In this document: one piece after another, positions 15,973 to 33,807 of the stretch
How positions within the stretch are numbered: the stretch's first letter is position 1
How the letters are laid out: each line of letters starts with the position of its first letter
Assembly: GCF_001442535.1 (NCBI RefSeq)
Contig: NZ_CP013141.1
Coordinates: forward strand, 1,117,602 to 1,181,601
DNA from: Lysobacter antibioticus
Lineage (GTDB): Bacteria; Pseudomonadota; Gammaproteobacteria; Xanthomonadales; Xanthomonadaceae
Direction of reading: 5' to 3'
DNA length: 64,000 bases
Program-made: the position numbers and the translations under genes
Notes under the pieces: model-generated
Told to the model about the DNA's origin: nothing
The model's input: the letters and a program-made list of their open reading frames with translations, nothing else
Databases searched by the model: none

Positions 15973-16020
15973 TAGATGTTGCTTACGGCTCTGCGGCAAG
16001 AAACGCCGCAACCACCAGTT

Positions 16021-16140
16021 GCGCGGTCGCGGCTCGCGCCGCTCCTACCCTAACGGCTTCGGGAGGCGGCGTTGCGAGACCGCAACAACGCGGTCGCGGC
16101 TTGTGACCGAAGGAAATCCCTGTGGGACGCCGCTCCTACC
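16021..16140. repeat. REP-like repeats, one interrupted
   Basis: One intact copy of the REP-like family on the minus strand (16021-16049). A second copy is split: gtcgcggctt (16093-16102) and gccgctcctacc (16129-16140) are separated by 26 bases of other sequence, as if interrupted by an insertion. Confidence 0.7.
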
Positions 16141-16159: not shown

Positions 16160-18049
16160 CTATTCACCCTGCGCGACACGCCCGCGCCGCGAACGCTCCA
16201 GCCACCACACGCCCGCGCTGACCAACAACCAGCCCAGGAACCACGGCCACGACGCGCCGCGCTGAACCTGCGCAGACGCGACCGAATTCGCCAGCGACGA
16301 GGCCGCAGCGGTCGGCGCTCGCGCTTGCGCCATCAAGTTCAATGTCGCTTCACGCATTTCGCTCGCCCGCAAGCCCGGCGCCTCGTCGCGTCCGCGCACC
16401 GCGAAGGGCTGCGAGTACTCGCCCTGGCGCAACAGATGCCAGCCCGCTTCGGTCGGCCAGAACGCGGCGCAGCGTTCGCTGCCGCTGGCCGGATCGATCA
16501 ACAGATGAATGTTCTGGCCTTGCGGCGTACGCACCAGCGCCCCATCGCTCAAGCCGCACAGCGATACGCGCCGGCCCTGCCGCGCCTCACCATCGATCCG
16601 CAGTACCGGCTTCGGCTGGGCCCGCGCCAGTGCGCCAAAAGCGGCACTCCACCATTGCCCATGCAGATCGTCGCGGCCGACCAGGGTCAGGCGGAAGCTG
16701 TCGCTCAGGGTCCACAAGCCAAGCCGGCCGCGCCCAGTGCTGCGCCAGCTCGCAAAAGCCTTGCCGTCCTTGCCGCGCAGCAGGCTGTGGGCACCGGCGC
16801 CATCGAGTGTGAGCGCACGGCGGTTCAATACCGGCAATTCGGCCATCGCCTCATCGCGGGCGCGCGGCGCGTCGATCGTGCCCGGGCCGATGCGCGCACG
16901 GGTCGCTTCTTCATCCGCGCTCGATGGCGGTAAGCGCACTTCGACCGAGTCCGCACCGGCGCCGAGCTCGAAGCCCAGCGCCCGCAGTTGCGTGCGCGTG
17001 CGTGGCGACAAAGGGCCGCCGATGCGCAGCAGTACGCCGAGGCCGTCGCGCATGGCGCCGAGCAAGGCCGCACGCTGCGATTCGCCCAGGCCCTCCCAGA
17101 CGCGTTCATCTAGCACGACCAGGTCGAAACCCGCCAAGGTCGGGGCATTCAAACTCAGCGGTGCATCGCCGAGTTGCAGCCCAGCGCCGACATCGATCTG
17201 GGTGTGCAACTTGATTCCGGCGTCCAAGGCCCAGCGTCGCAGGTACTTCAACTCCGGACTCGGCGCGCCGGCCAACACCAGCACTCGCGGCGGAGTGTCG
17301 GCGACTACCGACAAGGGCAGTTCGATCTCTTCGGCAACGTTCTGACGCACGTCGCGCAAGCGCAGCCTGAAGTTCATCAGGCCCGGAATGCGTGCGATGG
17401 CGCCGACGCGGAAACCGCCGTCCGCCGCCAAGATGCTGCGGTCGACCCGTTGCAGACCCGGGTCGAGCAATTCGACCAGCGCACCAGGCATCGCTTCGAC
17501 TCGTCCGCTCACGCTGAACTCGGCGCCGGCCGCGACCTCGCGTGGTGCCCACAAACCGCCCAATCCGCGCGGCGACGAGGTCGGCTGCCATTCGACCGTC
17601 AAGCCGCGTGCCGCATCGCGATCGCGCGGCTCCAAGCCGGCGCCGAGCAGGCGCAGCCGTTGCGTGCCGGGATGTCGACGCAGTGCAGTGGCGAGGTCGG
17701 GTACGCGTTCGCTGTCGGCCGAGACCACGGCCTCGGGCAAAGCGATACCGGTCTCGCCGGCGATCGTGGCATCGCTTGCGCTCGCACCGGCCGTCGCCAC
17801 CACCAAGGTGCCGGCTTCGCTGTAGACCAGCGGCGGGAACAGCGCGAGATACAGCAAGGCCGCCATCAATGGCTGCGCGATCAGCAACAACGCCAGCCGC
17901 CAGCCGCGCGCACGCGCCCCGGTCCCGCTGCGGTACTGGCGCAGGATCAGGCTCGCCATCGCCAGCACGGCGGCGAACCCGAGCAATCCGGCGACCGCGG
18001 TTTCAAGGCCGCTTTGCAGACCGGTATCGAGATCGATGGCGCCGATCAT
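16160..18049 (-). CDS. GATase-like domain membrane protein of the MoxR cluster
   Basis: 629 residues from ATG 18049, which overlaps the upstream stop (ATGA). Two N-terminal membrane helices (about 10-36 and 47-72) are followed by a large periplasmic part. This includes a beta-sandwich-like section (about 155-260) and a region resembling the class I glutamine-amidotransferase fold (PPRVLVLAGAPSPELKYLRRWALDAGIKL ... FDLVVLDERVWEGLGESQRAALLGAMRDGLGVLLR), without an obvious catalytic Cys. A final membrane helix lies near the C-terminus (WPWFLGWLLVSAGVWWLE). This layout is common for the last gene of MoxR-DUF58-BatA clusters. The molecular role is unknown. Confidence 0.75.
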   Translation of the reverse strand: MIGAIDLDTGLQSGLETAVAGLLGFAAVLAMASLILRQYRSGTGARARGWRLALLLIAQPLMAALLYLALFPPLVYSEAGTLVVATAGASASDATIAGETGIALPEAVVSADSERVPDLATALRRHPGTQRLRLLGAGLEPRDRDAARGLTVEWQPTSSPRGLGGLWAPREVAAGAEFSVSGRVEAMPGALVELLDPGLQRVDRSILAADGGFRVGAIARIPGLMNFRLRLRDVRQNVAEEIELPLSVVADTPPRVLVLAGAPSPELKYLRRWALDAGIKLHTQIDVGAGLQLGDAPLSLNAPTLAGFDLVVLDERVWEGLGESQRAALLGAMRDGLGVLLRIGGPLSPRTRTQLRALGFELGAGADSVEVRLPPSSADEEATRARIGPGTIDAPRARDEAMAELPVLNRRALTLDGAGAHSLLRGKDGKAFASWRSTGRGRLGLWTLSDSFRLTLVGRDDLHGQWWSAAFGALARAQPKPVLRIDGEARQGRRVSLCGLSDGALVRTPQGQNIHLLIDPASGSERCAAFWPTEAGWHLLRQGEYSQPFAVRGRDEAPGLRASEMREATLNLMAQARAPTAAASSLANSVASAQVQRGASWPWFLGWLLVSAGVWWLERSRRGRVAQGE

Positions 18050-20262
18050 CGCCGGGCCTCCTGCTGCAAGGCCTCGAAATAACGCCGGTCGACCGCATCG
18101 CCCTGCCCGCGCCGCGGCACGCTCGCCGGCGGCCGCGTCAGCAGCGGCCACAGCAGGCGCCGCAACTCGGCGCGGCAGCGTCGGCATTCGGGTTCGTTGC
18201 GCAAGGCATCGAAGGCAGCGGCGAAGGCCAAGGGATCGGGCACCCGCGACTCGTGCTCGCGCAACCAACGCTGCAGGCCGGTGTAGTCGATCGGGGGCGG
18301 CTCGGTCGTGCGCGTGCTTTGCTCCAGATCGCGCCACAGCGATTCGAGCAAGGGGTCGGTCGCGTTCGCTGCGGCTAGCCTCTCGCCGCGTCGCGCCAGA
18401 CCGGCGCGCTCGCCGCTCAGGCGGCGGCTCTCGTCGATCGGCGGCAGCTCGGGGCCGACCCGGGCCAGATAAATGCGCGTGGCCTGCTGCACTTTCTTGA
18501 TGAAGCCCAACGCCTTGTATGCATACGGCAGTGCCTGCTGCGGGTGGCCCTGTCGAAGATGCAGCTCCGACTGCCACATCTCGTCGAGCGCGGCCTTGAG
18601 CAGCTTGCGCGTGTCCGGATCGAGCAAGGTCGCGGCCTCGGCATGATCGTGGGTATGGCCGAACTGCTCCAGCACCGGACCTTCCTCGCCGAAGCTCGGC
18701 GCGGCCGGCTTCGGTGTGTGCGCATGCTCATCGTGCTGCTCGGGCGCCGAACTCGCGGCTTGCCCCTTTTCCGCGGGCGCATGCTGGTCATGGGCCTGGC
18801 CGGGTTCGTCGTGCGGCTCGGGTTCGTCGCGATCGTTGGTCGGCAGTTGCGGCGCGCCTTCGGATTCTTCGCCGAGGAACTGGCCGTAGCGCAGGCGCAG
18901 CAGGCGCTGGTCGACGCCGATCGCGTCGGAACGTTCGATAAACCGCGCCTCGTCGAGTTTGCGCCGCTGCGCGATCAAGGCCTCGGCGTCGATGATGATC
19001 TGGCGCTGGCTGCGGAAATACGCCGGCAAGGTGGTCTTGACCATGCCGTCCAGGCCGGTCGCCTCGCTGCCCAAGTCGGCCGGCCAGCGCAGGATCAGGC
19101 TCGGGCTCAGCGCCGTCTGCGCCTTAGGCGAGCGGTTGTCGTCGACGCTGAGCTGGACGATGAGGTCGTCGCCGCTGGCGAAGCCGAGGCTGGCCAGGTC
19201 GAGACGCTGCGCATAGCGCTTCTGGGTCGTCGTACCCGTGCCGCGCAGACTGAGGCGCTGCTCGCGGAAGGTGATGTTCTCGCCGCTGCCCTGGGCCAGG
19301 GTGATGCGCAGCTGCGCGTTCGCGGCCAGGCCGTAGTCGTCGCTGGCCTCGAATTCCAGCGGCCAGCCGCGCTGGCCCGCGCTCATCAGGCTCAGGCCGC
19401 GATCGGGTTCGAGCATGCGCAACTGCGGTGCACGGTCGGCGGTGACGTCGAGGCGGTACAGACGGCGCGTCTGCGCTTCCGGCGCGCCGCTGGCGACGAT
19501 GCGATACAAGGCCGGCTTGGCCAGCACCCGCTCGGCGCTCCAGCGTCCGTCGCTCTGGCGCGCCAGCGCTAAGCGCTGGCCGTCGTGGAAGACCAGCTCG
19601 ACCGCGCTCGGCTGCGGCTCGAAACGCAGATTCCAGCGCAGGCGCGCGTTCTCGGGCACGCGCCCTTCGAGGGTGGGCTCGCTGCGCGACGGCAAGTGGG
19701 TATAGGCCGGTGGATCGATGCGCAGGCCTTGTTCGATCAGGCGAGGCTGCCCGGGCAAGGCCGCGACCTGGGGCGCCGGCGACAAGGCTTCGAGATCGCG
19801 CGCGCCGCTCTGCGCGCGTGGCCACAGACCGATCGCGATCAAGGCCAGCGCCGCAGCAAGCGCGGACAGGAGCAGGCGCCGTGCCGACCACGCCGGGCGC
19901 AGCTCGGGACCGTTTGCGGTTTCGATACGTTCGCGCAGGCGCGCCTGCTGCAAGCGCTGCAAGCCGTTCAAGCTCTCGCCCGATACGAACAACAGATCGG
20001 CGCTGTCGTCCATGTCGCTGCGGGTGGCGTTGAGGCGACGCGCGAGCCAAGCATGGTCGAGGCGCCGGGCGCTACGCCAGGCGACGACGATGACCGCAAT
20101 GCCGACCGCGGCCGCAACCGCCAACGCAATGACGAGACCCTGCATTCGCCACGCCCATGCCGCCGCAACCAGCGCCCACGGCAGCAGGCACAGGGCCAGA
20201 TCGAGGGCGCGCCGGGTGCGCGCCGAATGCAGCTTGTCTGCGAGGATCGCCGCCGCGGTCAT
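18046..20262 (-). CDS. DUF4175-like large membrane protein
   Basis: 738 residues from ATG 20262, overlapping the previous stop by four bases. Two close membrane helices near the N-terminus (about 22-63) and a third near 125-145 are followed by a periplasmic region with the DUF4175-type motif FEASDDYGLAANAQLRITL and a helical C-terminal half. An unusual His/Glu/Asp-rich linker of about 60 residues (roughly 485-545; runs such as HDQHA, QHDEHAH, GHTHDHAE) may bind divalent metal. It is coupled to its neighbours by overlapping start and stop codons, so a membrane complex with BatA-like and GATase-like proteins is likely. Confidence 0.72.
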   Translation of the reverse strand: MTAAAILADKLHSARTRRALDLALCLLPWALVAAAWAWRMQGLVIALAVAAAVGIAVIVVAWRSARRLDHAWLARRLNATRSDMDDSADLLFVSGESLNGLQRLQQARLRERIETANGPELRPAWSARRLLLSALAAALALIAIGLWPRAQSGARDLEALSPAPQVAALPGQPRLIEQGLRIDPPAYTHLPSRSEPTLEGRVPENARLRWNLRFEPQPSAVELVFHDGQRLALARQSDGRWSAERVLAKPALYRIVASGAPEAQTRRLYRLDVTADRAPQLRMLEPDRGLSLMSAGQRGWPLEFEASDDYGLAANAQLRITLAQGSGENITFREQRLSLRGTGTTTQKRYAQRLDLASLGFASGDDLIVQLSVDDNRSPKAQTALSPSLILRWPADLGSEATGLDGMVKTTLPAYFRSQRQIIIDAEALIAQRRKLDEARFIERSDAIGVDQRLLRLRYGQFLGEESEGAPQLPTNDRDEPEPHDEPGQAHDQHAPAEKGQAASSAPEQHDEHAHTPKPAAPSFGEEGPVLEQFGHTHDHAEAATLLDPDTRKLLKAALDEMWQSELHLRQGHPQQALPYAYKALGFIKKVQQATRIYLARVGPELPPIDESRRLSGERAGLARRGERLAAANATDPLLESLWRDLEQSTRTTEPPPIDYTGLQRWLREHESRVPDPLAFAAAFDALRNEPECRRCRAELRRLLWPLLTRPPASVPRRGQGDAVDRRYFEALQQEARR

Positions 20263-21434
20263 GGCGTCGCTCCGCGTCGGGCGCGCGTCGCCAGCCAGCG
20301 TTCGAGCACGAACACCAACGCGATCAACAGCGCCAGCCACAAGCGCAGATCGCGCGGCGGCAAGGCATAGGCCGCAGCGCCGATCGCCGGCGCATGGTCT
20401 TTAGCCGAGACCCGAGAAGGCGCGGGAGCGGTTGGCTCGAACAAGCCGCGTACGCGTTGCGGGAAACCCGGTTCGAGCAACTCGGGCATGACCTGCGGCA
20501 CCAGCGCACGGGTCAAGCGCATGAGCCGGCCACGGCCGAACGCGACGCCCTCGACCAGGGCCGCACCGGACCCGTCGCGCCACAATGGCGCACGCGGCGA
20601 TGAGGCGTCGCGCGGCCATTCGCTGCCGGCATCGAGCAGCACGCGCCCGCCGTTGCGGGCGAACTCGCCCACTTCGTTCGGCACCGCACCAGGCGCGAGC
20701 CAGATCAACTCGCGGCTGTCGGCCGGCCACGCCTCGGTGCTCGGCGCGACCGATTCGGTTGAGCGACTGCCGGCCGCCGGATCGCGCCAGGCGGCGATCG
20801 CCGCGCGCAGATACGGCAGGGCCGCTGCACGATCGTCGGCATAGCGGACCACCGGCGACGGCGCGGCGATGGCGCTGGTCGGGGTCGCAACCGGCATCGT
20901 GCCGGGCACGACCCGCCATTCGACCGGCCGCGACAACCGTGGCCGTTGTCCGTCGGCGCCGCCCATGCGCTCGGGCACGAACACGGTCAGCGCCGCTGCC
21001 GCCGGCAGGCTGGCATCGAGCTCGCGCAACATACTCGACAGCGGCACGGGCCGATCGGGTGCGGCGTCATCGAGACGTGGAAAACCCGGCGCGAGCCAGT
21101 GCAGGCGCGCATCGGATGCGGCAGCTTGGGCACGTGCGGCCTGGGTGTCGACGCCCGGTGCGACCACGATCCACGGCCGCGCACTCTCAGCGCCGAACAG
21201 CACCGGCCGCGCCAACCACAGCGCCAGCAGGGCCAGCAGCAACAGACGCAGCAACAACAACGGCCATTCGTCGAAGCGGATGCGGTGCCGCGGCTTCGGC
21301 CGCTGCCGCAGCCAACGCAGGGCGGCGAAATCGGTCGGGCGCTGTTCGCTGCGCCGCGCCAGATGGATCAACAGCGGCAGGAGCAACGCGGCCAATGCGG
21401 CCAGCGCGGCAGGCAGAAGCAGGCTAAGGTTCAC
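20259..21434 (-). CDS. BatA domain membrane protein
   Basis: 391 residues. The N-terminus is the BatA domain: LLLPAALAALAALLLPLLIHLARRSEQRPTDFAALRWLRQ, then a second helix WPLLLLRLLLLALLALWLARPVLF. A periplasmic region of about 280 residues follows without a recognisable VWA motif, and a C-terminal helix (LWLALLIALVFVLERWLA) returns to the membrane. It overlaps DUF58 upstream and the DUF4175-like gene downstream by 4 bp each. In Bat (aerotolerance) operons the equivalent protein forms membrane complexes with MoxR and DUF58 partners. Confidence 0.82.
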   Translation of the reverse strand: MNLSLLLPAALAALAALLLPLLIHLARRSEQRPTDFAALRWLRQRPKPRHRIRFDEWPLLLLRLLLLALLALWLARPVLFGAESARPWIVVAPGVDTQAARAQAAASDARLHWLAPGFPRLDDAAPDRPVPLSSMLRELDASLPAAAALTVFVPERMGGADGQRPRLSRPVEWRVVPGTMPVATPTSAIAAPSPVVRYADDRAAALPYLRAAIAAWRDPAAGSRSTESVAPSTEAWPADSRELIWLAPGAVPNEVGEFARNGGRVLLDAGSEWPRDASSPRAPLWRDGSGAALVEGVAFGRGRLMRLTRALVPQVMPELLEPGFPQRVRGLFEPTAPAPSRVSAKDHAPAIGAAAYALPPRDLRLWLALLIALVFVLERWLATRARRGATP

Positions 21435-22336
21435 GCCGGCTCCGCCATGTCGCGCGCGCCGAACAGCCGCCGCAGCGGCAGATCCAGCGCTTCGTCGAGC
21501 ACGTATTCGGTGTGGCGGATGCCGCTGGCGTCCAGGCGGGCATCGAGTGCCTTGCGCGCGGCAGCGAATCGGACGAGAAACTCGTCGCGCAAGGCCGCGC
21601 CGTCGCCGAGCAATTCTTCGCCGGTTTCCGGGTCGCGGAAGTGGTAACCGCCGCGGAACGGGAAGTCGCGTTCCTCGGCGGTCAGGATGCGAATGCTCAG
21701 CACTTCGCGTCGCGCCGAGGCGAGCCGCTCGGCGATCGCGACCGCGCCCTCATCGCTGCCGTCGTCGAAACCGTCGCCGAGCATCAGCACCAGGTCGCCG
21801 GCGGCGATGCGCTCCCACAGCGGCCGCAGCCGTTGCGCGGCCGGCCAGGCGCCCTGCGCCGACAAGGCATGCAGCTCCAGCCACAAGCGGTCGCGTTGGC
21901 GCGCACCGGTCGCCGGGGCGACCAGACGCACGCCGTCCTCACGCAAGGCGATCAAACCGAAACGGTCGCCCTGGCGCAGTGCCAGCTCGGCGACGCAGGC
22001 GGCCAGGGCCTTGGCCGCGTCGAGCCGCGACCAATCCGGGCGCGCCGCGTCGCACTGATTCATCGAGGCGGTGGCGTCGACCAGCAACCAGACCGCGAGC
22101 GGGCTTTCGCGCTCGGCTTCGCGCACGAAGAAGCGGTCCGAGCGCGCATACAACTTCCAGTCGACCTGGCGCAGTTCGTCGCCGGGCTCGTAAGCACGGT
22201 ACTGGGCGAATTCGAGCCCGGCGCCGCGGCTGCGGCTGTTGTGCAGGCCGATACCGTGGGTGCCGACCGCGCGCCGCGACAACAGCCGCAGGCTGCGCAG
22301 CCGCGCTCGTACCGGCGGTGGAATGAAATCCTTCAC
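21431..22336 (-). CDS. DUF58 domain protein
   Basis: 301 residues. The DUF58 signature is clear: SRSRGAGLEFAQYRAYEPGDELRQVDWKLYARSDRFFVREAERES. It is followed by a von Willebrand-like stretch with a MIDAS-type motif LLVDATASMN and LMLGDGFDDGS. DUF58 proteins sit beside MoxR ATPases almost universally and are thought to be their client-binding partners. The gene starts 19 bases after moxR and ends overlapping the BatA-like gene. Confidence 0.93.
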   Translation of the reverse strand: MKDFIPPPVRARLRSLRLLSRRAVGTHGIGLHNSRSRGAGLEFAQYRAYEPGDELRQVDWKLYARSDRFFVREAERESPLAVWLLVDATASMNQCDAARPDWSRLDAAKALAACVAELALRQGDRFGLIALREDGVRLVAPATGARQRDRLWLELHALSAQGAWPAAQRLRPLWERIAAGDLVLMLGDGFDDGSDEGAVAIAERLASARREVLSIRILTAEERDFPFRGGYHFRDPETGEELLGDGAALRDEFLVRFAAARKALDARLDASGIRHTEYVLDEALDLPLRRLFGARDMAEPA

Positions 22337-22355
22337 GAGGCCTCGCCGAGCGTGC

Positions 22356-23366
<1,011 letters not shown>

Positions 23367-23444
23367 TTCGTCATCCCGAAAGCCAACATTCGTTCAAGCA
23401 AGCAACAGCAACAGCAAATCCCCCGCGCCCGCTGCGCGATCGCC

Positions 23445-23532
23445 GCCCCCTTTTTCTAAGGGGGCAAAAGCGAGCCCACCACCGTGCTCTGCCGAGTCCC
23501 GAGTCCCGAGTCCCGAATCCCGAATCCCGAGC
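23445..23532. repeat. Hairpin and heptamer repeats between DUF4159 and moxR
   Basis: A hairpin gccccc/gggggc (23445-23450 with 23460-23465) with loop tttttctaa is followed by five units of a 7-bp repeat, cgagtcc/cgaatcc, at 23493-23527. The heptamer is the same family as the repeats at 57016-57095. No T tract follows the hairpin on the minus strand. Confidence 0.7.
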
Positions 23533-23533
23533 A

Positions 23534-24238
23534 TCAAGAATTCAACGCATACATGACGATGTTGACCGCGAACTTGGTGTTGTCCTCGGCCAGGAAGCGT
23601 TTGTTGCGCCAGTCGTAGTCCCATTCGCAGCCGTAGTCTTTGTTGCTGTACAGCACGCCCAGGCGACCGTCGATCTCGATGCCTTGCAGGTAGTCGTGGA
23701 CCAGGTCGTCGCCCCAGCCGTTGAGCTCGAAGCCGGTCGCGGGCGGGCCGTCGAAGACGAAGAAGCTGCGGTAAATGGGGTGCTTCTTCGGCAGCCGGCG
23801 CAAGGCCTTGGCGCCGAAAATCCTCGCCATCTGTTCCTCGAAGGACTTGGCGAACAGACCGTCGATGTCGTGGTTGCAGTCGTCGACGAAGACGAAGCCG
23901 CCATTGCGCACATAGCGCTCGAAGTTGCGGCGTTCGTCGGGGTTGAACTCGACCAGCTTGTGCCCGGCCAGGTAGCAGAACGGCGCGCCGAGCATCTTCG
24001 GGTCGGCCAGCGCCAGCACATGCTCTTTCGGGTCGACCCGCAGGTTGGTGTAATCGATCAGCGAGGTGATCAGGTTGGCCGGCATGCGCTGGTCGACGTC
24101 CCAGTCGCCGGAGTCGTATTTGAGCCGGGTGAACCAGAAGTCGTAATCGGCGCGGGCGGCCTGGGCCAGCGGCGAACGCGCCAGCCAGGCGCCGGCGGCA
24201 CCGCCGAGCATCAGCCGCAGGAACTGCGCCCGGTTCAC
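23534..24238 (-). CDS. DUF4159 domain protein, exported
   Basis: 234 residues from GTG 24238. The whole mature protein matches DUF4159: DYDFWFTRLKYDSGDWDVDQRMPANLITSLIDYTNLRVDPKE, KLVEFNPDERRNFERYVRNGGFVFVDDCNHD, HPIYRSFFVFDGPP and LGVLYSNKDYGCEWDYDW. The N-terminus (VNRAQFLRLMLGGAAGAWLA) resembles a Tat signal but has only one Arg at the usual position, so it is either a degenerate Tat or a Sec signal. In other proteobacteria DUF4159 is fused to the BatA domain; here it is a separate gene in the same cluster. Function unknown. Confidence 0.85.
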   Translation of the reverse strand: MNRAQFLRLMLGGAAGAWLARSPLAQAARADYDFWFTRLKYDSGDWDVDQRMPANLITSLIDYTNLRVDPKEHVLALADPKMLGAPFCYLAGHKLVEFNPDERRNFERYVRNGGFVFVDDCNHDIDGLFAKSFEEQMARIFGAKALRRLPKKHPIYRSFFVFDGPPATGFELNGWGDDLVHDYLQGIEIDGRLGVLYSNKDYGCEWDYDWRNKRFLAEDNTKFAVNIVMYALNS

Positions 24239-24300
24239 CGGGCCCTGCCTGCGTCGGTCTGGATGCCTGGAACCGCCATGCCCTGCCTCAACCCCATCGG

Positions 24301-25926
24301 CTAGAGCGCACGCGCGGTGTTGATGATGTTGACGCCGTTGAAGCGCGTGGTGCTCGACCCGTGCGACACCGCCGAGACTTGGCTCGGCTGGCCCTTGCCG
24401 TCGAAGAACGAGCCGCCGAGGCGGAAGTCGCGTTCGTCGCAGACCGCCACGCAGGCGCTCCAGAACTCCGGGGTGCGGATCTGGTAAGCGGCATCCTCGA
24501 CCATGCCGGTGACCTGGCCGTTCTTGATCTCGTAGAACAACTGGCCGCCGAATTGGGCGTTGTAACGTTGCTGGTCGATCGAATACGAGCCGCGGCCGTG
24601 CACGTACAGGCCGCGTTCGACGCCCTTGATCATCTCGGCCACGCTCAATGGCTGCTTGCCCGGCTTCAGCGAAACATTGGCCATGCGCTGGAACTGCACG
24701 CTCGACCAGGAATCGGCATAGCTGCAGCCGTGCGATTGCTTGTGACCGAGCAGATGCGCCTCGTCGCGGGTGGCCTGGTAGTCGACCAGGATGCCGTCGC
24801 GGATCAAGTCCCACTCGCGGGTCTTGACGCCTTCGTCGTCGTAGCCGACCGCGCCGAGGCTGCCGGGACGGGTCTTGTCGGCGACGAAGTTGACCAACTC
24901 GCTGCCGTAGCGATAGCCCTGCTCGCGCTTGTCCAGGGTGGCGAAACTGGTGCCTGCGTAATTGGCCTCGTAGCCGAGCACGCGGTCGAGTTCGAGCGGG
25001 TGGCCGACGTTCTCGTGGATGGTCAGGAACAGGTTGGACGGGTCCAGTACCAGGTCGTACTTGCCCGGCTTCACCGACGGCGCCTTGAGCTTGGCGCGGG
25101 CGTGCTTGGCGGCGGCGACCGCGTCTTCCATCACGTCGTAGGAGCGTCCGTAACCGGTCAAGCCGCCGGGCAGCGCGACCTTGCCGGCCGGGTCGGCGTC
25201 GAGGTATTCGTAGCCCATGCCCATCGGCGCCGACAGGCCGTCGCGGGTGCGGAACTTGCCGCTGACCTTGTCGACCGCGGTCGCGGTCAGCGGCAGCCAG
25301 ATGCGATGGATGTCCTGGTCGATGTAGCTGCCGTCGCTGGAAGCGAAATACTTCTGTTCGTTGATCACGAACAGGGTCGAGTTGACGTAGTCGGCGCCGG
25401 CCTTGAGCGCGGCGGCGTTGACGCCGAGCAGCAGGTCGACTTTCTCCTTGATCGGCACCGCCATCGCGTTCTTGCGCAGCGGCGTCGCCCAGCGCGTTTC
25501 GCCAACGCCGGCGACCGGCGCCAGTTCGACCTTGCGGCTCTGCACACGCGCGTTGGCGCGGGCGATCGCCAGCGCCTGGCGCGTGGCGATCGCGACGGCG
25601 TCCGGGGTCGAGGCGTCGGTGGCGGCGAAGCCCCATGCGCCCTGGCTCAGCACGCGGATGCCGACGCCGGCGGATTCGCCGTTGACGATGTTGCGGACCT
25701 GCGCTTCGCGGGTCACCACCGATTGGCGCAGGTAGCGGCCGATGCGCACGTCGCAATAGTCCGCCCCGCCCTCGCGCGCGGCGTTCAGCGCGGTGTCGGC
25801 CAGGCGCCGCCAGTGCGCCACGTCGGCCGGTTCCAGCAAGGCTTCGGCGGCGATCGCGCGGCCGTAGGGAAGCGCCAGGCCGGCCAGACCCAGGCCGGTG
25901 AAACTCAGGAAATCGCGTCGTTGCAT
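24301..25926 (-). CDS. Tat-exported TldD-like metalloprotease (copy 1)
   Basis: 541 residues from ATG 25926, which exposes a twin-arginine signal (MQRRDFLSFTGLGLAGLALPYGRAIAAEA). The TldD/PmbA (U62) fold follows, with the zinc motif HENVGH at 304-309 and the downstream GHPLELDRVLGYEANYAGTSFA. The C-terminal domain is complete (YSIDQQRYNAQFGGQLFYEIKNGQVTGMVEDAAYQIRTPEFW, SAVSHGSSTTRFNGVNIINTARAL). Classical TldD is a cytosolic protease acting with TldE on small modified peptides; this one should act in the periplasm. It is collinear with the TldD at 27449-29077, including the position of the active-site His. Confidence 0.92.
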   Translation of the reverse strand: MQRRDFLSFTGLGLAGLALPYGRAIAAEALLEPADVAHWRRLADTALNAAREGGADYCDVRIGRYLRQSVVTREAQVRNIVNGESAGVGIRVLSQGAWGFAATDASTPDAVAIATRQALAIARANARVQSRKVELAPVAGVGETRWATPLRKNAMAVPIKEKVDLLLGVNAAALKAGADYVNSTLFVINEQKYFASSDGSYIDQDIHRIWLPLTATAVDKVSGKFRTRDGLSAPMGMGYEYLDADPAGKVALPGGLTGYGRSYDVMEDAVAAAKHARAKLKAPSVKPGKYDLVLDPSNLFLTIHENVGHPLELDRVLGYEANYAGTSFATLDKREQGYRYGSELVNFVADKTRPGSLGAVGYDDEGVKTREWDLIRDGILVDYQATRDEAHLLGHKQSHGCSYADSWSSVQFQRMANVSLKPGKQPLSVAEMIKGVERGLYVHGRGSYSIDQQRYNAQFGGQLFYEIKNGQVTGMVEDAAYQIRTPEFWSACVAVCDERDFRLGGSFFDGKGQPSQVSAVSHGSSTTRFNGVNIINTARAL

Positions 25927-26092
25927 CGGGCGGCTCGGGTTCGGCGGGTCGGGTTCGGCAGATCGCGTTGGGCAGATCACGTTGGGCAGAATCGGCGGGA
26001 CACTGCTGCAGCGAACCGATGCGGGCGGCGCGCCGGATCGCCGGCGGCGCCGCCCCTCAAACGCCGCACTCAAGCGGCGCGTTCAAGTGTCG

Positions 26093-27427
26093 TCAGACCG
26101 CGTCCGACAACGAGGTGAAGGTGAAATCGCGCAACTTCATCGGCGGGATCATCATCACGAACGAGGACTCGTCGCCGGCCACGCGCACCGGCCGGCCGAG
26201 TTCCTCGATGTTGTTGAGCATGATCACCGGCGACTCGTTGAAGCGGAAATTCTTCACCGGGTGCTTGATCACCCCGTTCTCGATGTAGAAGGTGCCGTCG
26301 CGGGTCAGGCCGGTCAGCAGCACGGTCTGCGGGTCGACCATCCGTATGTACCAGGTGCGGGTGACCAGGATGCCCTTCTGGGTGCCCTTGATCAGCTCGG
26401 CGGTCGACTTGTCGCCGCCGGCCATGAGCAGGTTGCCGGGCGTGCCGACCGCACGCTTGCCCTGCTTCTTGGCCCAGAAGCGCGAGTAGTCCAACGCGGT
26501 GACCTTGCCGTTCTCGACCACCGCCATCTTCTCGCGCGCCAGGCCCTGCGCATCCCACGGCAATACCGGGGCGCGCGGGTCCCAGGGATCGGCGCTGATG
26601 TTGACGCGCGGGTCGTAGACCTGCTCGCCGAGTTTGTTGCCGCCGCCCTTCTTCGACAGGAAGCTGCGGCCTTCGTCGGCCTGGCGCGCATCGAAGAAAT
26701 TCATCATGAACGAGATCAGCCCGGCGGCCGCGGCCGGCTCCAGGATCACCGTGTACTTGCCCGGCTCCAGCGCCTTGGCTTCGGCCGACTCGGTGGCCTT
26801 GCGCATGGCGATGCGCACTTCGTTGTCGGCCTTGAACTCGCTGGCATCCTTGAGGTTACGCCCGACCCAGCCGGAACCGCGGCCATCGTCGGTGCGAACG
26901 GTGCAGGTGTAATCGAAGTTGGTGGCCTGCTGGTAACCGAAATTGCCCTTGCTGTTGGCCACCGCGACGAAGCTCTGGCCGTCTTCGAGAAAACCGGCGG
27001 CCGTGAGCTTGTCGGCGCGGCACGGCGCGATCGAGTCGGCTGCGACCTGGGCGCGGAACTCGGGCGTGATCGCCGCGGTCGAGGCGCTGAAGGTCGGGCT
27101 CGGCTTATAGCTCTGCTTGTCGATCGCCGGCATGAACTCCGGGTTTTCCGGCGCCAGCCTGGCCAGGTCTTCGGCGCGGCGAACCACGCGTTCTAGCGCG
27201 GCATCGTCGAACTCGTTGATGCTGGCGGTGCCGACGCGGTTGCCGAAGGCCGATTGCACGGCCAGGTTGCTGTTGCTGACGATGCCGCTGGTCGACACGT
27301 TGTTGAGGGCGAAACGGATGTTGCCGGCGATGGAACCGGTCAGGGTCGCGGTGCACTCGTCGGCCTTGGACAGCGCCAGGACCTTGTCGAGGATGGCCTT
27401 GGCTTCGGCTTCGGTGAAGATGCTCAT
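26093..27427 (-). CDS. PmbA/TldE-like protein without export signal
   Basis: 444 residues, PmbA/TldE branch of the U62 family. It starts MSIFTEAEAKAILDKVLALSKADECTATLTG with no signal peptide or Tat motif and lacks the HExxxH site, as expected for the non-catalytic partner of a TldD-TldE heterodimer. Characteristic parts are RVGTASINEFDDAALERVVRRAEDLARL and the C-terminal ENGVIKHPVKNFRFNESPVIMLNNIEELGRPVRV. It lies between two TldD copies, 21 bases after one and 166 bases before the other. If it pairs with them it must either stay cytoplasmic or be exported with them as a folded complex. Confidence 0.92.
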   Translation of the reverse strand: MSIFTEAEAKAILDKVLALSKADECTATLTGSIAGNIRFALNNVSTSGIVSNSNLAVQSAFGNRVGTASINEFDDAALERVVRRAEDLARLAPENPEFMPAIDKQSYKPSPTFSASTAAITPEFRAQVAADSIAPCRADKLTAAGFLEDGQSFVAVANSKGNFGYQQATNFDYTCTVRTDDGRGSGWVGRNLKDASEFKADNEVRIAMRKATESAEAKALEPGKYTVILEPAAAAGLISFMMNFFDARQADEGRSFLSKKGGGNKLGEQVYDPRVNISADPWDPRAPVLPWDAQGLAREKMAVVENGKVTALDYSRFWAKKQGKRAVGTPGNLLMAGGDKSTAELIKGTQKGILVTRTWYIRMVDPQTVLLTGLTRDGTFYIENGVIKHPVKNFRFNESPVIMLNNIEELGRPVRVAGDESSFVMMIPPMKLRDFTFTSLSDAV

Positions 27428-27448
27428 GGGTGGATTCTCCTGCGCCGG

Positions 27449-29077
27449 TCAGCCGAGCTTGCGGGCGGTGTTGATGACGTTGACGCCGTTGAAGCGCGCC
27501 GTGCTGGAACCGTGCGAGACCGCCGAGACCTGGCCCGGCTGGCCCTTGCCGTCGAAGAACGAGCCGCCGAGGCGGTAGTCGCTTTCGTCGCAGACCGCGA
27601 CGCAGGAATTCCAGAATTCCGGGGTGCGGATCTGGTAGGCCACGTCTTCGAGCATGCCGGTGATCTTGCCGTTCTTGATCTCGTAGAACAGTTGGCCGCC
27701 GAACTGGGCGTTGTAGCGCTGCTGGTCGATCGAGAAGGAGCCGTCGCCGACGATGTAGATGCCGTTCTCGACGTCCTTGATCATGTCGGCGACGCTGAGC
27801 TTGTTCTTGCCCGGCGCCAGCGACACGTTGGCCATGCGCTGGAACTGCACGCTCGACCAGGAGTCGGCGTAGCAGCAGCCGTCGGATTCGCTCTTGCCCA
27901 GGATGTGGGCCTGGTCGCGGATGGTCTGGTAGTCGACCAGGATGCCGTCCTTGATCAGGTTCCAGCGCTTGGTCTTGACGCCCTCGTCGTCGAAGCCGAC
28001 CGCGCCGAGGCTGCCCTGCTGGGTCTTGTCGGCGAACACGGTGACCTGGTCGCTGCCGTACTTGAAACCGCTCTTGACCTTGTCGACGGTGGCGAAACTG
28101 GTGCCGGCGAAGTTGGCCTCGTAGCCGAGCACGCGGTCGAGTTCGAGCGGATGGCCGATCGATTCGTGGATGGTCAGCCAGGTGTGCGAGGGGTCCAGCA
28201 CCAGGTCGTACTTGCCCGGCTTGACCGAGGGCGCGGTGAGCTTCTGCCGCGCCTGCTTGGCGGCGGCGACCGCGTCTTCGAGCATGTCGTAGGAATTGCT
28301 GTAGTTGACTACGCCGTTCGGCGATACGGTCTTGCCCGAGGCGGCGCCGTCGAGGTATTCGAAGCCCATGCCCATCGGCGAGGACAGGCCTTCGCGGGTG
28401 CGGAACTTGCCGCTGGCCTTGTCGATCGCGGTGATCGTCATCGGCGTCCAGATGCGGTGCACGTCCTGGTCGATGTAGGAGCCGTCGGTCGAGGCGAAGT
28501 ATTTCTGCTCGTTGACCAGGAACAGCATCGAGTTGACGAAGTCGGCGCCGGCCTTGACCGCGGCGGCGTTGACGCCGAGCAATAGGTCGACCTTGTCCTT
28601 GATCGGCACTTCCATGGCGTTCTTGCGAATCGGCGTCTTCCACGCCACCTCGCCCACGCCCGGGGTCTTGGCCAACACCACCGGCTGGGTCTGGGTCTTG
28701 GAGTTCGCGCGCGCGATCGCGGCGGCCTGTTGCGCCGCCTCGGCCACGCTCTTGGCGTTCAGCTGGTTGGTCGCGGCGAAGCCCCAGGCACCGTTGACCA
28801 GCACACGGATGCCGATGCCGGTCGACTCGGTATTGACCACGTTCTGGACCTTGTCCTCGCGGGTGATGACGAACTGGCGCAGATAACGGCCGATGCGCAC
28901 ATCGCAGTAGCTCGCGCCCGCGCCTTTCGCCGCGGTCAGCGCGGTGTCGGCGAGTACTTTCTTCTTGGCCACGTCCAGCGGCGTCAACAGGGCTTCGGCG
29001 GCGATCGCGCTGCCGTAGGGAATCATCAGCCCGGCGATGCCGAGCCCCGACATGGTCAGGAAGTTGCGTCTATCCAC
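27449..29077 (-). CDS. Tat-exported TldD-like metalloprotease (copy 2)
   Basis: 542 residues from GTG 29077, giving the Tat signal VDRRNFLTMSGLGIAGLMIPYGSAIAAEA. The zinc motif HESIGH is at 304-309, followed by GHPLELDRVLGYEANFAGTSFA. Long stretches are identical or nearly so to copy 1 (24301-25926), so the pair arose by duplication, with PmbA now between them. It is the first gene of the nine-gene minus-strand group. The upstream 547-base spacer holds a REP pair and a 14-bp palindrome. Confidence 0.92.
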   Translation of the reverse strand: MDRRNFLTMSGLGIAGLMIPYGSAIAAEALLTPLDVAKKKVLADTALTAAKGAGASYCDVRIGRYLRQFVITREDKVQNVVNTESTGIGIRVLVNGAWGFAATNQLNAKSVAEAAQQAAAIARANSKTQTQPVVLAKTPGVGEVAWKTPIRKNAMEVPIKDKVDLLLGVNAAAVKAGADFVNSMLFLVNEQKYFASTDGSYIDQDVHRIWTPMTITAIDKASGKFRTREGLSSPMGMGFEYLDGAASGKTVSPNGVVNYSNSYDMLEDAVAAAKQARQKLTAPSVKPGKYDLVLDPSHTWLTIHESIGHPLELDRVLGYEANFAGTSFATVDKVKSGFKYGSDQVTVFADKTQQGSLGAVGFDDEGVKTKRWNLIKDGILVDYQTIRDQAHILGKSESDGCCYADSWSSVQFQRMANVSLAPGKNKLSVADMIKDVENGIYIVGDGSFSIDQQRYNAQFGGQLFYEIKNGKITGMLEDVAYQIRTPEFWNSCVAVCDESDYRLGGSFFDGKGQPGQVSAVSHGSSTARFNGVNVINTARKLG

Positions 29078-29624: not shown

Positions 29625-31052
29625 ATGCACAGATTCCGGCACTGGATCGACGGCCAGGCGCGCGATGCGGCCGGCGGTCGTTGGCTCGATGTCCACGACC
29701 CCGCCAATGCGCAAGCGTATGCGCAGGTCGCAGCCGGCGACGCCGCCGACGTCGAGCTCGCGGTCGCCGCGGCCCAGGCTGCGTTCCCGGCCTGGTCGGC
29801 TCTGCCGCATAGCGAACGCGCGCGCTGGCTCGAAGCATTGGCCAGCGCGTTGGAAACGCGCCTGGAAGACTTCGCCCAAGCCGAATCGCGCGATGCCGGC
29901 AAGCCGATCCGGCTCGCCCGCGAGGCCGAGATCCCGCGTGCGGTCTCGAACCTGCGCTTCTTCGCCCATGCCGCAACCCAGTTCGCCAGCGAATCCCACC
30001 ACGGCCAGGCCGGGCTCAACTACACCTTGCGCGCGCCGCTCGGGGTGGTCGCGACGATCTCGCCGTGGAACCTGCCGCTGTATCTGTTCACCTGGAAGAT
30101 CGCCCCGGCGCTCGCGGCCGGCAACACCGTGGTCGCCAAACCGTCCGAAGTGACCCCGGCCACCGCCAGCCTGCTCGGCGAGCTGGCCGCGCAGATCGGC
30201 TTCCCGCGCGGCGTGCTCAACATCGTCCACGGCCTCGGCCCCGAGGTCGGCGAAACCCTGGTCCGGCACCCGGCCGTGCGCGCGATCTCCTTCACCGGCA
30301 GCACCGCGGTCGGCCAGCGCATCGCCGGCATTGCCGCGCCGCTGTTGCGCAAGGTCTCGCTGGAGCTCGGCGGCAAGAACCCGACCCTGGTGTTCGCCGA
30401 CAGCGATTGGCGCGCCAATCTCGACACCCTGATGCGCTCGGCGTTCCAGAATTCCGGGCAAATCTGCCTGTGCGGCTCGCGCCTGCTGATCGAGCGCTCG
30501 ATCTACGACGAAGTCCGCGACGCCCTGGTCGAACGCGCCCAGGCGCTGAAGATCGGCGAGCCCGCCGACGAAGCCACCTCGCTCGGCCCGCTGGTCTCCC
30601 AGGCGCATTACGACAAGGTCCTGGCCGCGCTCGAACGCGCGCGCGGCGAAGGCGGCCGCGTGCTGTGCGGCGGCCATGCCCTGGACCGACCCGGCTGGTA
30701 CGTGGCGCCGACCCTGATCGAAGGCCTCGGCCCGGATTGCGCGAGCAACCGCGAAGAGATCTTCGGCCCGGTCGTGACGCTTCAAGCGTTCGACGACGAC
30801 GCCCAGGCTCTGGCCCTGGCCAATGCCGGCGACTACGGCCTGTCTGCGTCGGTCTGGACCCGCGACCTCAACCGCGCCCATCGCCTCGCCGCGCAATTGC
30901 GCGTCGGCATGGTCTGGGTCAACACCTGGCTGCAACGCGACCTGCGCACGCCGTTCGGCGGCGTCGGCGCGTCGGGCCTCGGCCGCGAAGGCGGCGCCGA
31001 GGCCATGCGTTTCTTCACCGACGCCAAGAACGTCGGCCTTCACCTGGGATGA
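29625..31052 (+). CDS. 2-aminomuconate/2-hydroxymuconate semialdehyde dehydrogenase
   Basis: 475 residues of the aldehyde dehydrogenase superfamily. The NAD-binding region (TISPWNLPLYLFTWKIAPALAAGNTVVAKPSE), catalytic Glu (LELGGKNP) and catalytic Cys (FQNSGQICLCGSRLLI) are intact. The C-terminal RDLRTPFGGVGASGLGREGG is typical of hydroxymuconic/aminomuconic semialdehyde dehydrogenases. With ACMSD and a RidA-type deaminase downstream, the natural role is oxidation of 2-aminomuconate semialdehyde to 2-aminomuconate in 3-hydroxyanthranilate catabolism. It is the first gene of the cluster; the next starts seven bases after its stop. Confidence 0.9.
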   Translation: MHRFRHWIDGQARDAAGGRWLDVHDPANAQAYAQVAAGDAADVELAVAAAQAAFPAWSALPHSERARWLEALASALETRLEDFAQAESRDAGKPIRLAREAEIPRAVSNLRFFAHAATQFASESHHGQAGLNYTLRAPLGVVATISPWNLPLYLFTWKIAPALAAGNTVVAKPSEVTPATASLLGELAAQIGFPRGVLNIVHGLGPEVGETLVRHPAVRAISFTGSTAVGQRIAGIAAPLLRKVSLELGGKNPTLVFADSDWRANLDTLMRSAFQNSGQICLCGSRLLIERSIYDEVRDALVERAQALKIGEPADEATSLGPLVSQAHYDKVLAALERARGEGGRVLCGGHALDRPGWYVAPTLIEGLGPDCASNREEIFGPVVTLQAFDDDAQALALANAGDYGLSASVWTRDLNRAHRLAAQLRVGMVWVNTWLQRDLRTPFGGVGASGLGREGGAEAMRFFTDAKNVGLHLG

Positions 31053-31059
31053 CCGTTGT

Positions 31060-31725
31060 ATGACCCCGTTGCACGACCTGCTTGAACGAAACCGCGAATG
31101 GTCCGAGCGCATCAGCGCCGAGGACCCGGAGTTCTTTGCCCGCCTCTCGCGCCAACAGGCGCCCGAATACCTTTGGATCGGCTGCTCGGATTCGCGCGTG
31201 CCGGCCAACCAGATCATCGACATGGCCCCGGGCGAGGTCTTCGTCCATCGCAACATCGCCAACGTCGTGGTCCATACCGATCTCAACTGCCTGTCGGTGA
31301 TCCAGTTCGCGGTCGACGTGCTCAAGGTCAAGCACATCCTCGTCGTCGGTCACTACGGCTGCGGCGGCGTCCATGCCGCGTTGCACGGGCACCGTCTCGG
31401 CCTGGCCGACAACTGGATCCGCCACGTCGGCGACGTCGCCGACAAGCACGTGGCCTGCATCTCGCATGCCCATGCCGAGGAGCGACACGACCGTTTGTGC
31501 GAACTCAACGTGATCGAGCAGGTGCAGAACCTCAGCCTGACCACCATCGTCCGCGATGCCTGGGCGCGCCAGCAGCCGCTCGCCGTGCACGGCTGGGTCT
31601 ATAGCCTGCGCAACGGCCGCGTCCACGACACCGGCATGAACATCGACAGCTTCGAAGCGCTGCAGGACACCTACGAGCGCGCCGTCGCCACGGTGCACTC
31701 CACCCACGGCGGTTCGCCGCGATGA
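31060..31725 (+). CDS. Beta-class carbonic anhydrase
   Basis: 221 residues from ATG 31060. Zinc ligands C42, H98 and C101 and the catalytic dyad D44/R46 (CSDSR, GHYGCGG) are all present, as in E. coli Can-type enzymes. It interconverts CO2 and bicarbonate in the cytoplasm. Its position is unusual: it lies between the semialdehyde dehydrogenase and the deaminase, overlapping the latter by ATGA, so it is part of the kynurenine-cluster transcript. Handling CO2 released by ACMSD is a reasonable inference. Confidence 0.93.
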   Translation: MTPLHDLLERNREWSERISAEDPEFFARLSRQQAPEYLWIGCSDSRVPANQIIDMAPGEVFVHRNIANVVVHTDLNCLSVIQFAVDVLKVKHILVVGHYGCGGVHAALHGHRLGLADNWIRHVGDVADKHVACISHAHAEERHDRLCELNVIEQVQNLSLTTIVRDAWARQQPLAVHGWVYSLRNGRVHDTGMNIDSFEALQDTYERAVATVHSTHGGSPR

Positions 31726-32180
31726 GCGGCGGCGGCATCAGCGCCGCCAAGGCGCCGCGGCCGGTCGGCCTGTACCCGCATGCGCGCCGGGTCGGCGAGC
31801 TGCTGTTCCTGTCCGGGATCGGCCCGCGCGATGCCGCCAGCAACGCCATCCCCGGCAACGTCCACGACGCCGAAGGCCGCCTGATCGCCTACGACATCGA
31901 GCTGCAATGCCGCTCGGTGTTCGCCAACGTCCGCGCCGTGCTCGAAGCCAGCGGCGCCGGCTGGGACGACCTGGTCGACGTGACCGTGTACCTGACCGAC
32001 ATGGCCCGCGATTTCACCGCCTATAACGCGGTCTGGGCCGAGTATTTCCCCGACCTCGAACGCGCGCCGTGCCGTACCACGCTCGGCATCACCGCGCTGC
32101 CGACGCCGATCGCCATCGAACTCAAATGCATCGCCGCCTTCGCCCCGCAGCGGAACGGCGCACCGCCCGAGGGCACGTGA
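31722..32180 (+). CDS. RidA family protein, probable 2-aminomuconate deaminase
   Basis: 152 residues, YjgF/RidA fold: LLFLSGIGPRD, IELQCRSVFANVRAVLEASGAGWDDLVDVTVYLTDM, YNAVWAEYFPDLERAPCRTTLGITALPTPIAIELKCIA. Position between the dehydrogenase and 3-HAO matches the AmnD/NbaF-type 2-aminomuconate deaminase, which makes 4-oxalocrotonate. The start overlaps the carbonic anhydrase stop, and its own TGA abuts the ATG of 3-HAO. A general enamine/imine deaminase is the alternative reading. Confidence 0.85.
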   Translation: MSGGGISAAKAPRPVGLYPHARRVGELLFLSGIGPRDAASNAIPGNVHDAEGRLIAYDIELQCRSVFANVRAVLEASGAGWDDLVDVTVYLTDMARDFTAYNAVWAEYFPDLERAPCRTTLGITALPTPIAIELKCIAAFAPQRNGAPPEGT

Positions 32181-32711
32181 ATGCTTCCTGGACCGATCAA
32201 CCTCAATCAATGGATCGACGAACACCGGCACCTGCTCAAGCCGCCGGTCGGCAACAAGGTGATCCACCTCGGCGACTTCATCGTCATGGTGGTCGGCGGC
32301 CCTAACCAGCGCACCGACTATCACTGGGACGAAGGCCCGGAATGGTTCTACCAGCTCGAGGGCGAGATGGTTCTGCGGATCCAGGAGGATGGGGCTGTGC
32401 GCGACATCCCGATCCGCGCCGGCGAGACCTTCCTGCTGCCGCCGCGCGTGCCGCATTCGCCGCAGCGCATGCCCGACTCGATCGGCCTGGTGATCGAGCG
32501 CAAGCGCCTGGAGCACGAAGACGACGGTCTGATGTGGTACTGCGAGCGCTGCAATCACAAGCTGTACGAAGAGTTCTTCCATTTGCACGACATCGAAGCC
32601 GATTTCCCGCCGGTGTTCGAGCGTTTCTATTCCTCGCGCGAACATCGGACCTGCATGGACTGCGGCCATCTGAACCCGGCGCCGGGCCGCTACGTGATGC
32701 CCGACACCTGA
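32181..32711 (+). CDS. nbaC: 3-hydroxyanthranilate 3,4-dioxygenase
   Basis: 176 residues, cupin fold, full bacterial length. Catalytic Fe(II) ligands H48, E54 and H92 are present ([23 protein letters not shown]). The second, rubredoxin-like iron site is also intact (CERC in the middle, CMDC near the end). It opens the ring of 3-hydroxyanthranilate to 2-amino-3-carboxymuconate semialdehyde, which either cyclises to quinolinate for NAD or is drawn off by the ACMSD encoded seven bases downstream. Confidence 0.97.
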
Positions 32712-32718
32712 GGCGACG

Positions 32719-33729: not shown

Positions 33730-33807
33730 GCGCTCGTCGCCGACGCCGCCACGCGTACGCGTGAACCCTCGTCTCTCATCACCGCTCCACGTTCCCAGGC
33801 CGTTCCC

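What the first reader, a model, noticed from the sequence alone, without database searches (positions are those of the whole stretch)
16160..29077. Nine-gene cluster joining Tat-exported TldD proteases to a MoxR/DUF58/BatA/DUF4175 membrane system
Seen: nine consecutive minus-strand genes, TldD-PmbA-TldD-DUF4159-MoxR-DUF58-BatA-DUF4175-GATase-like, the last five nearly all overlapping or within 20 bases. Known: MoxR-DUF58-BatA genes form chaperone/membrane complexes of unclear client; TldD/TldE act on small modified peptides. Inference: a periplasmic peptide- or cofactor-processing machine in which the MoxR complex matures or regulates exported TldD enzymes. DUF4159 and DUF4175 have no assigned role.
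Basis: partly seen in the sequence, partly recalled or inferred. Interest (0 to 1): 0.75.

Follow-up and report, generated by a model that had tools for sequence, protein, structure and literature searches.

The report
Exported peptidase with its own ATPase
A set of nine neighbouring bacterial genes that travel together appears to build an exported peptide-cutting enzyme plus an ATP-driven membrane machine that may activate it; what the set does has not been worked out.

Summary
The nine genes are real, in the stated order and strand, and form a conserved unit. In a 397-genome sample of the phylum, the Tat-type TldD, the stand-alone DUF4159 and the DUF4175-like gene occur in exactly the same 13 genomes. 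Of 99 distinct loci, 86 carry all eight families in order; 12 of the other 13 are cut by a contig end. Elsewhere DUF4159 is fused to BatA; 32 such genomes tested (of 113) have no linked TldD.

The cluster TldDs are a distinct subfamily: Tat motif (142 of 144), HExxGH (144 of 144), and an Asp where E. coli TldD has its third metal ligand, Cys (144 of 144). The PmbA partner lacks signal and HExxGH (0 of 100), so it probably hitch-hikes through Tat. DUF4159 carries an invariant DDCNHD; the DUF4175-like protein has a His-rich loop.

Best reading: a MoxR-driven membrane machine that activates, perhaps metallates, an exported TldD/E peptidase. The unit is shown; the mechanism is inferred. A 2020 Stenotrophomonas transcriptome paper mentions what looks like this operon as uncharacterised.

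The parts
27449..29077 (-). tldD1: TldD-type metallopeptidase with Tat signal (VDRRNFL), HESIGH, DGK
26093..27427 (-). pmbA: TldE-type partner, no signal peptide, no HExxGH
24301..25926 (-). tldD2: second TldD with Tat signal (MQRRDFL), HENVGH, DGK
23534..24238 (-). duf4159: stand-alone DUF4159, class I GATase/ThuA-like fold, DDCNHD between a strand and a helix
22356..23366 (-). moxR: MoxR-type AAA+ ATPase
21431..22336 (-). duf58: DUF58 protein with vWA motif DATAS, no TM-like segment
20259..21434 (-). batA: BatA N-terminal double anchor, 3 TM-like segments
18046..20262 (-). DUF4175-like: 3 TM-like segments, predicted beta domains, His-rich low-confidence loop, GHTHD
16160..18049 (-). GATase/ThuA-like membrane protein, last gene of the unit
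16005..16033 (-). terminator-like stem-loop after the last gene
   Evidence: weak: 16 such sites in 15 kb, 10.5 expected

Best explanation
The nine genes are one functional unit. TldD1 and/or TldD2 fold in the cytoplasm with the signal-less PmbA (TldE-type) partner and are exported as a complex by Tat, PmbA hitch-hiking. In the periplasm the TldD/E peptidase meets a dedicated membrane machine: MoxR ATPase and DUF58 (vWA) on the cytoplasmic side; BatA, the DUF4175-like protein and the GATase-like protein in the membrane with large periplasmic domains; and exported DUF4159. This machine uses ATP to remodel and activate the peptidase, most likely by loading or guarding its active-site metal, as NorQ/NorD does for nitric oxide reductase; the His-rich loop and the Cys/His residues of DUF4159 would handle the metal. 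Shown by sequence: the unit, its co-occurrence, the signals, the metal-site change. Inferred: hitch-hiking, topology, physical interaction, metal loading. The substrate is unknown, probably small peptides.
For: Cluster-type TldD (63% identity or more), stand-alone DUF4159 and DUF4175-like in the same 13 of 397 genomes. Order sample: DUF4175-like in 23 of 101, the 25 DUF4159 genomes minus G004 and G018. 86 of 99 distinct loci with all eight families in order. Short gaps across loci. Distances in the T+E tree and the 4159+BatA+4175 tree correlate at r=0.92. DUF4159 is fused to BatA in 5 of 5 long proteins scanned, which ties it to the MoxR machine. Tat 142 of 144, HExxGH 144 of 144, DGK 144 of 144; E HExxGH 0 of 100. 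In E. coli TldD Cys454 is the third ligand, Asp is noted as an alternative, and TldD plus TldE are needed for activity (PMC5810440 passages). Of five TldDs outside the cluster found by profile, four read CGK and none has a Tat motif or a cluster-type MoxR in the stretch seen. DDCNHD in 99 of 99 cluster DUF4159s and 0 of 18 other DUF4159 loci. HxH motif 90 of 92, His-rich loop. G218 shows no TldD/PmbA outside the cluster. NorQD metal insertion by a MoxR/vWA pair (PMC13036017, abstract and passages).
Against: I have no interaction, expression or metal data. Tat normally exports folded, cofactor-loaded proteins, so periplasmic metal loading is not required (general knowledge). Apo-TldD of E. coli is reconstituted simply by adding metal and loses it very slowly, so a chaperone is not needed there. 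A TldD-type peptidase, PbsP, works without TldE (PMC12257519 passages), so PmbA need not accompany TldD. DUF4159's Cys could be a nucleophile or a disulfide rather than a metal ligand; the His-rich loop has other possible roles. 13 of 49 well-supported splits of the T+E tree conflict with the machine tree, so co-inheritance is not perfectly strict. One of five outside TldDs (L186) has neither CGK nor DGK, so the Cys/Asp rule rests on few cases. Gaps of 166-167 nt leave room for internal promoters.
Confidence: 0.42

Rival explanations
1. The machine and the peptidase work in sequence on a common substrate: the MoxR complex pulls apart or extracts an envelope protein or peptide and the exported TldD/E degrades it (envelope quality control). 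TldD is not a client.
For: Same genomic unit; TldD/E binds peptides in a sequence-independent way inside its chamber (PMC5810440 passages); MoxR-like ATPases remodel targets (PMC13036017 abstract).
Against: Does not by itself explain the clade-specific metal-site and Cys/His features.
Confidence: 0.3
2. A maturation pathway for a small modified peptide or peptide-derived cofactor, finished in the periplasm by TldD/E.
For: Known TldD/E roles: microcin B17 leader removal, release of a macrocyclic peptide by the TldD-type PbsP, and a role in PQQ supply in Gluconobacter oxydans (PMC8602642 passages).
Against: No further gene was found conserved beside the nine (only ORFs of 60 aa or more, so a short precursor could be missed). 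No recognised peptide-modifying enzyme in the unit.
Confidence: 0.12
3. Periplasmic peptidoglycan-peptide processing, with DUF4159 as an active cysteine hydrolase of the gamma-glutamyl hydrolase/GATase fold.
Confidence: 0.08
4. The nine genes are only neighbours, sharing expression but no function.
For: No direct interaction data exist.
Against: Patchy but all-or-none presence over eight families of the sample and near-constant order.
Confidence: 0.03

Closest known systems
E. coli TldD/TldE (PmbA) heterodimeric metalloprotease
   Same: Domain architecture, HExxGH on TldD only, TldE-type partner gene adjacent
   Different: Cluster TldDs have Tat signals, Asp-Gly-Lys instead of Cys-Gly-Lys, and come with a MoxR machine; distant in sequence (best PDB match E 2.1e-17)
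MoxR-DUF58-BatA/DUF4159 loci in other genomes of the phylum
   Same: MoxR, DUF58, BatA and DUF4159 families
   Different: There BatA and DUF4159 are one protein (5 of 5 scanned); no cluster-type TldD, PmbA or DUF4175-like gene in 14 of 14 stretches; no DDCNHD
NorQ/NorD metal-inserting MoxR/vWA pair
   Same: MoxR-like ATPase with a vWA partner bearing a MIDAS-type motif
   Different: NorD is one large protein and the client is nitric oxide reductase; here there are several membrane proteins and a peptidase is only the presumed client
Uncharacterised nine-tag S. maltophilia operon NIPOLPBK_01784-01792 (PMC7688217)
   Same: Two TldDs, a putative protease, a MoxR-like ATPase, a membrane protein and three hypotheticals are named for nine locus tags; Stenotrophomonas loci here carry T-T-E-4159-R-58-A-4175-G where not cut
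   Different: Identity is inferred from the description; I did not see that sequence. The paper says some of its genes were lower in biofilm in all isolates, yet elsewhere that only 5S rRNA was commonly lower in all; it offers no function

Membership tests
TldD/TldE metallopeptidases | Three PmbA/TldD Pfam domains | tested here: met
   All three genes, all three domains over cut-off
TldD/TldE metallopeptidases | HExxxH on TldD, absent from TldE | tested here: met
   144 of 144 T; 0 of 100 E
TldD/TldE metallopeptidases | Third metal ligand Cys454 (E. coli) | tested here: not met
   DGK instead of CGK in 144 of 144; Asp substitution is noted for some TldDs in PMC5810440. Equivalence rests on the [CD]GK motif; MAFFT placed a gap nearby
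NCBIfam TldD/PmbA equivalogs | Score above curated cut-off | tested here: not met
   tldD1 129 bits against 635 and 82 against 513; pmbA 52 against 438
Tat substrates | Twin-arginine motif near the N-terminus | tested here: met
   RRxF in 142 of 144 TldDs; the 2 misses start at a contig edge
Tat substrates | Tat-dependent export observed | not testable with these tools
   Needs fractionation
MoxR AAA+ ATPases with vWA partner | AAA_3 domain with Walker A and B | tested here: met
   both motifs in 98 of 98 (relaxed Walker A pattern; the strict one met 92 of 101)
MoxR AAA+ ATPases with vWA partner | vWA MIDAS core DxS/TxS in the partner | tested here: met
   95 of 95 DUF58 scoring over 150 bits, with a short pattern
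Metal-inserting MoxR/vWA systems | ATP-dependent metal loading of a client | not testable with these tools
   Needs biochemistry
DUF4175 (PF13779) | Score above Pfam cut-off | tested here: inconclusive
   No hit in the window protein; hits in 4 of 32 relatives, best 5.1e-13
Class I GATase/ThuA-like (last gene) | Pfam match | tested here: inconclusive
   ThuA in 8 of 34 relatives, best 9.5e-4; none in the window protein

The most novel reading that the evidence does not exclude
This is an undescribed kind of envelope machine: a MoxR AAA+ motor that, across the inner membrane, metallates or activates a Tat-exported heterodimeric TldD/E peptidase whose Cys metal ligand was swapped for Asp to suit the oxidising periplasm, with the signal-less TldE subunit carried out by its TldD partner. 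It would be a periplasmic TldD/E system and a peptidase served by its own MoxR machine, neither of which I found described in the papers searched.
Probability: 0.3. Interest if true: 0.8.

Novelty: new variant of a known kind. Interest (0 to 1): 0.62.

Why it matters
For many MoxR operons with DUF58 and BatA the client is not known (general knowledge). Here the presumed client is part of the same inseparable gene set, so the question becomes testable with single deletions. It would also place TldD/E, known as a cytoplasmic peptidase, in the periplasm, and it suggests a simple rule to test: Cys ligand inside, Asp ligand outside.

Tried and rejected
Independent distribution of the two halves: tested and rejected. 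A conserved tenth gene or flanking precursor: the ORF families shared by most loci are the known genes, the last gene and antisense frames; no further one stood out among ORFs of 60 aa or more (first 40 families printed); shorter ones not tested. Promoters: 0 sigma-70-like sites in 15 kb (1.1 expected), uninformative. The PDB fold search of the DUF4175-like model gave immunoglobulin-like, complement and similar beta domains, TM normalised to the query 0.14 at most: beta-sandwich domains and no more. A partnership with the ordinary TldD/PmbA pair (own copies near 4.95 Mb): not excluded here, but none was found in G218 (260 contigs). Cross-phylum: hardly tested; the TldD1 search of 72,556 plasmid records met 64, all under 60% identity.

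Literature searches (open-licence papers only): TldD/MoxR/DUF58, 14 papers at two of three terms; DUF4159/DUF4175, 1; TldD with twin-arginine, 1; TldD/MoxR/operon/Xanthomonas, 14 at three of four; TldD/TldE/hitchhiker/Tat signal, 58 at two of four, 15 listed; PmbA with MoxR, 1; two on MoxR mechanisms. I opened 13 papers, each as passages or outline: PMC7481262, PMC7688217, PMC8745565, PMC6122198, PMC8488296, PMC5810440, PMC4273604, PMC9728263, PMC13036017, PMC8602642, PMC4287336, PMC7074977, PMC12257519; only PMC7688217 describes this gene set. The other listed papers were not opened. [quoted passage not shown]

My errors: the gat query was out of frame and one search failed for that reason; redone. 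One search aligned spurious ORFs; redone. A first MIDAS pattern was too strict (80 of 98; then 94 of 98 with 4 read by eye). One search sorted genes by open-frame start and showed false permutations; redone by stop position. One search counted 102 loci, three of which were duplicates of named ones (L015, L027, L152); one search recounts 99, and these are the numbers used. (His-rich loop) counts still include the three duplicates, and the 81 tree loci hold one duplicate pair. Dropped before the count: L019 (BatA fusion), L023, L030, L032 (divergent DUF4159 without TldD); 5 of 149 TldDs with masked residues.
Full report
Observation. The window lies in a 5.77-Mb single-contig genome, most likely a Lysobacter: its DUF4159 is 94% identical to that of L. 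enzymogenes (the genus is inference). MoxR and DUF58 are 19 nt apart and the next three junctions are 4-nt overlaps. The genome also has another TldD/PmbA pair near 4.95 Mb and three further DUF58 matches.

Is it a unit? Twelve of the other 13 are cut by a contig end and one (L149) has a BatA below my score limit. Of 92 loci with the DUF4175-like gene, 89 have the last gene after it and three have no DNA left. The second TldD moves: before pmbA's TldD in Stenotrophomonas and several Pseudoxanthomonas, after pmbA in several Lysobacter, absent beside the cluster in most alphaproteobacterial loci.

These loci were picked for DUF4159, so unbiased samples matter more. In 397 genomes of the phylum, DUF4159 occurs in 126. 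In 113 it sits in an open frame of 578 to 1253 residues, mostly 900-1100; five such proteins scanned are BatA fused to DUF4159. The stand-alone form occurs in 13. The cluster-type TldD (63% identity or more) occurs in the same 13; two more distant matches, 45% and 32%, lie elsewhere. The DUF4175-like family occurs in the same 13. A direct test gave linked TldD in 6 of 6 short-form genomes and in none of 32 long-form ones (of 113); the nearest TldD on the same contig in those lies about 310 kb away. In 101 genomes of the order, DUF4159 is in 25 and DUF4175-like in 23, the difference being G004 and G018, whose DUF4159 is unlinked to TldD (G018's is the long form). Twelve tested genomes without DUF4159 (of 76) have exactly two TldD/PmbA matches each. 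The samples hold related genomes, so these are not independent events; but the 13 span eight families, presence is patchy inside several of them, and the three families tested come and go together. Trees of T+E and of 4159+BatA+4175 over 81 loci (one duplicate pair) correlate at r=0.92, with 13 of 49 well-supported splits in conflict.

The peptidase. The cluster TldDs keep HExxGH in 144 of 144 and carry an RRxF motif in 142 of 144, the two misses starting at a contig edge. E. coli TldD holds its metal with two His and Cys454, and Lys456 is also conserved; the authors note that Asp can replace Cys in some TldDs (PMC5810440, passages). Cluster TldDs read DGK there in 144 of 144, whereas the own TldD at 4.95 Mb reads CGK. 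Of five outside TldDs found by profile, four (G262, G299, Nonomuraea, Burkholderia stagnalis) read CGK and one (G004) neither; none has a Tat motif or a cluster-type MoxR in the stretch seen. Cys-to-Asp thus goes with export, which would make sense in an oxidising compartment; this rests on few outside cases. PmbA has no HExxGH in 100 of 100; in 42 of 79 loci an in-frame stop within 12 codons before its start leaves no room for a signal. Since TldD and TldE are both needed for activity in E. coli, PmbA probably rides out with TldD, as HybC and PaoB/C do (PMC4273604, abstract and part of the introduction). Against this, the TldD-type PbsP works without a TldE (PMC12257519, passages).

Mechanism. 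MoxR-like ATPases with vWA partners remodel targets and help insert metal; NorQ/NorD does so for nitric oxide reductase (PMC13036017, abstract and passages). A metallopeptidase, a His-rich membrane protein and a Cys/His-bearing exported partner beside such a pair point to activation or metal loading of the exported TldD/E. This is inference; a shared substrate is the main rival. Against it, apo-TldD of E. coli is reconstituted by adding metal alone.

What is known. Among the papers opened, only PMC7688217 describes the gene set (passages): nine locus tags in S. maltophilia, called not yet characterised, some genes said to be lower in biofilm in all isolates, although the same paper's Venn analysis names only 5S rRNA as commonly lower. 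It matches by description; I did not see its sequence. Searches for TldD with MoxR, DUF58, twin-arginine and for DUF4159/DUF4175 gave nothing on the function of the set. Verdict: a real, conserved, apparently uncharacterised system, a new variant that joins two known kinds.

Noticed in passing
window 29625-35097: Plus-strand genes beside the cluster: aldehyde dehydrogenase, amidohydrolase and kynureninase, a likely kynurenine-degradation set; no such family stood out beside the cluster elsewhere.
   Followed up: partly
window 23480-23533: Short tandem GGGATTCGGGA/GGGACTCGGGA repeats between duf4159 and moxR, which may mark an intergenic repeat or transcript boundary.
   Followed up: no
L050: A contig titled Bacillus subtilis SK7B5 carries the whole cluster with 83% DUF4159 identity, Stenotrophomonas-like: probably a mislabelled or contaminated record.
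   Followed up: no
G218 (L147): A gammaproteobacterial genome (260 contigs) in which only three TldD/PmbA copies were found, all in the cluster.
   Followed up: partly
L149: Doubled T-E-T-E arrangement, two TldD/PmbA pairs before one machine.
   Followed up: no
L186-L188 (G004, G015, G033): Further TldD-type pairs (PF19289); the cluster profiles hit only the one in L186, which has HExxGH but neither CGK nor DGK, and no MoxR in the stretch: another divergent TldD group.
   Followed up: no
L190: In Burkholderia stagnalis a TldD/PmbA pair sits directly behind a dipeptide ABC transporter, suggesting peptide degradation after import.
   Followed up: no
Xanthomonas campestris XC_1510 (PMC6122198, passage): A transposon insertion between a TldD gene (XC_1510) and XC_1511 was among the hits of a published regulator screen; whether that TldD is of the cluster type was not checked.
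   Followed up: no
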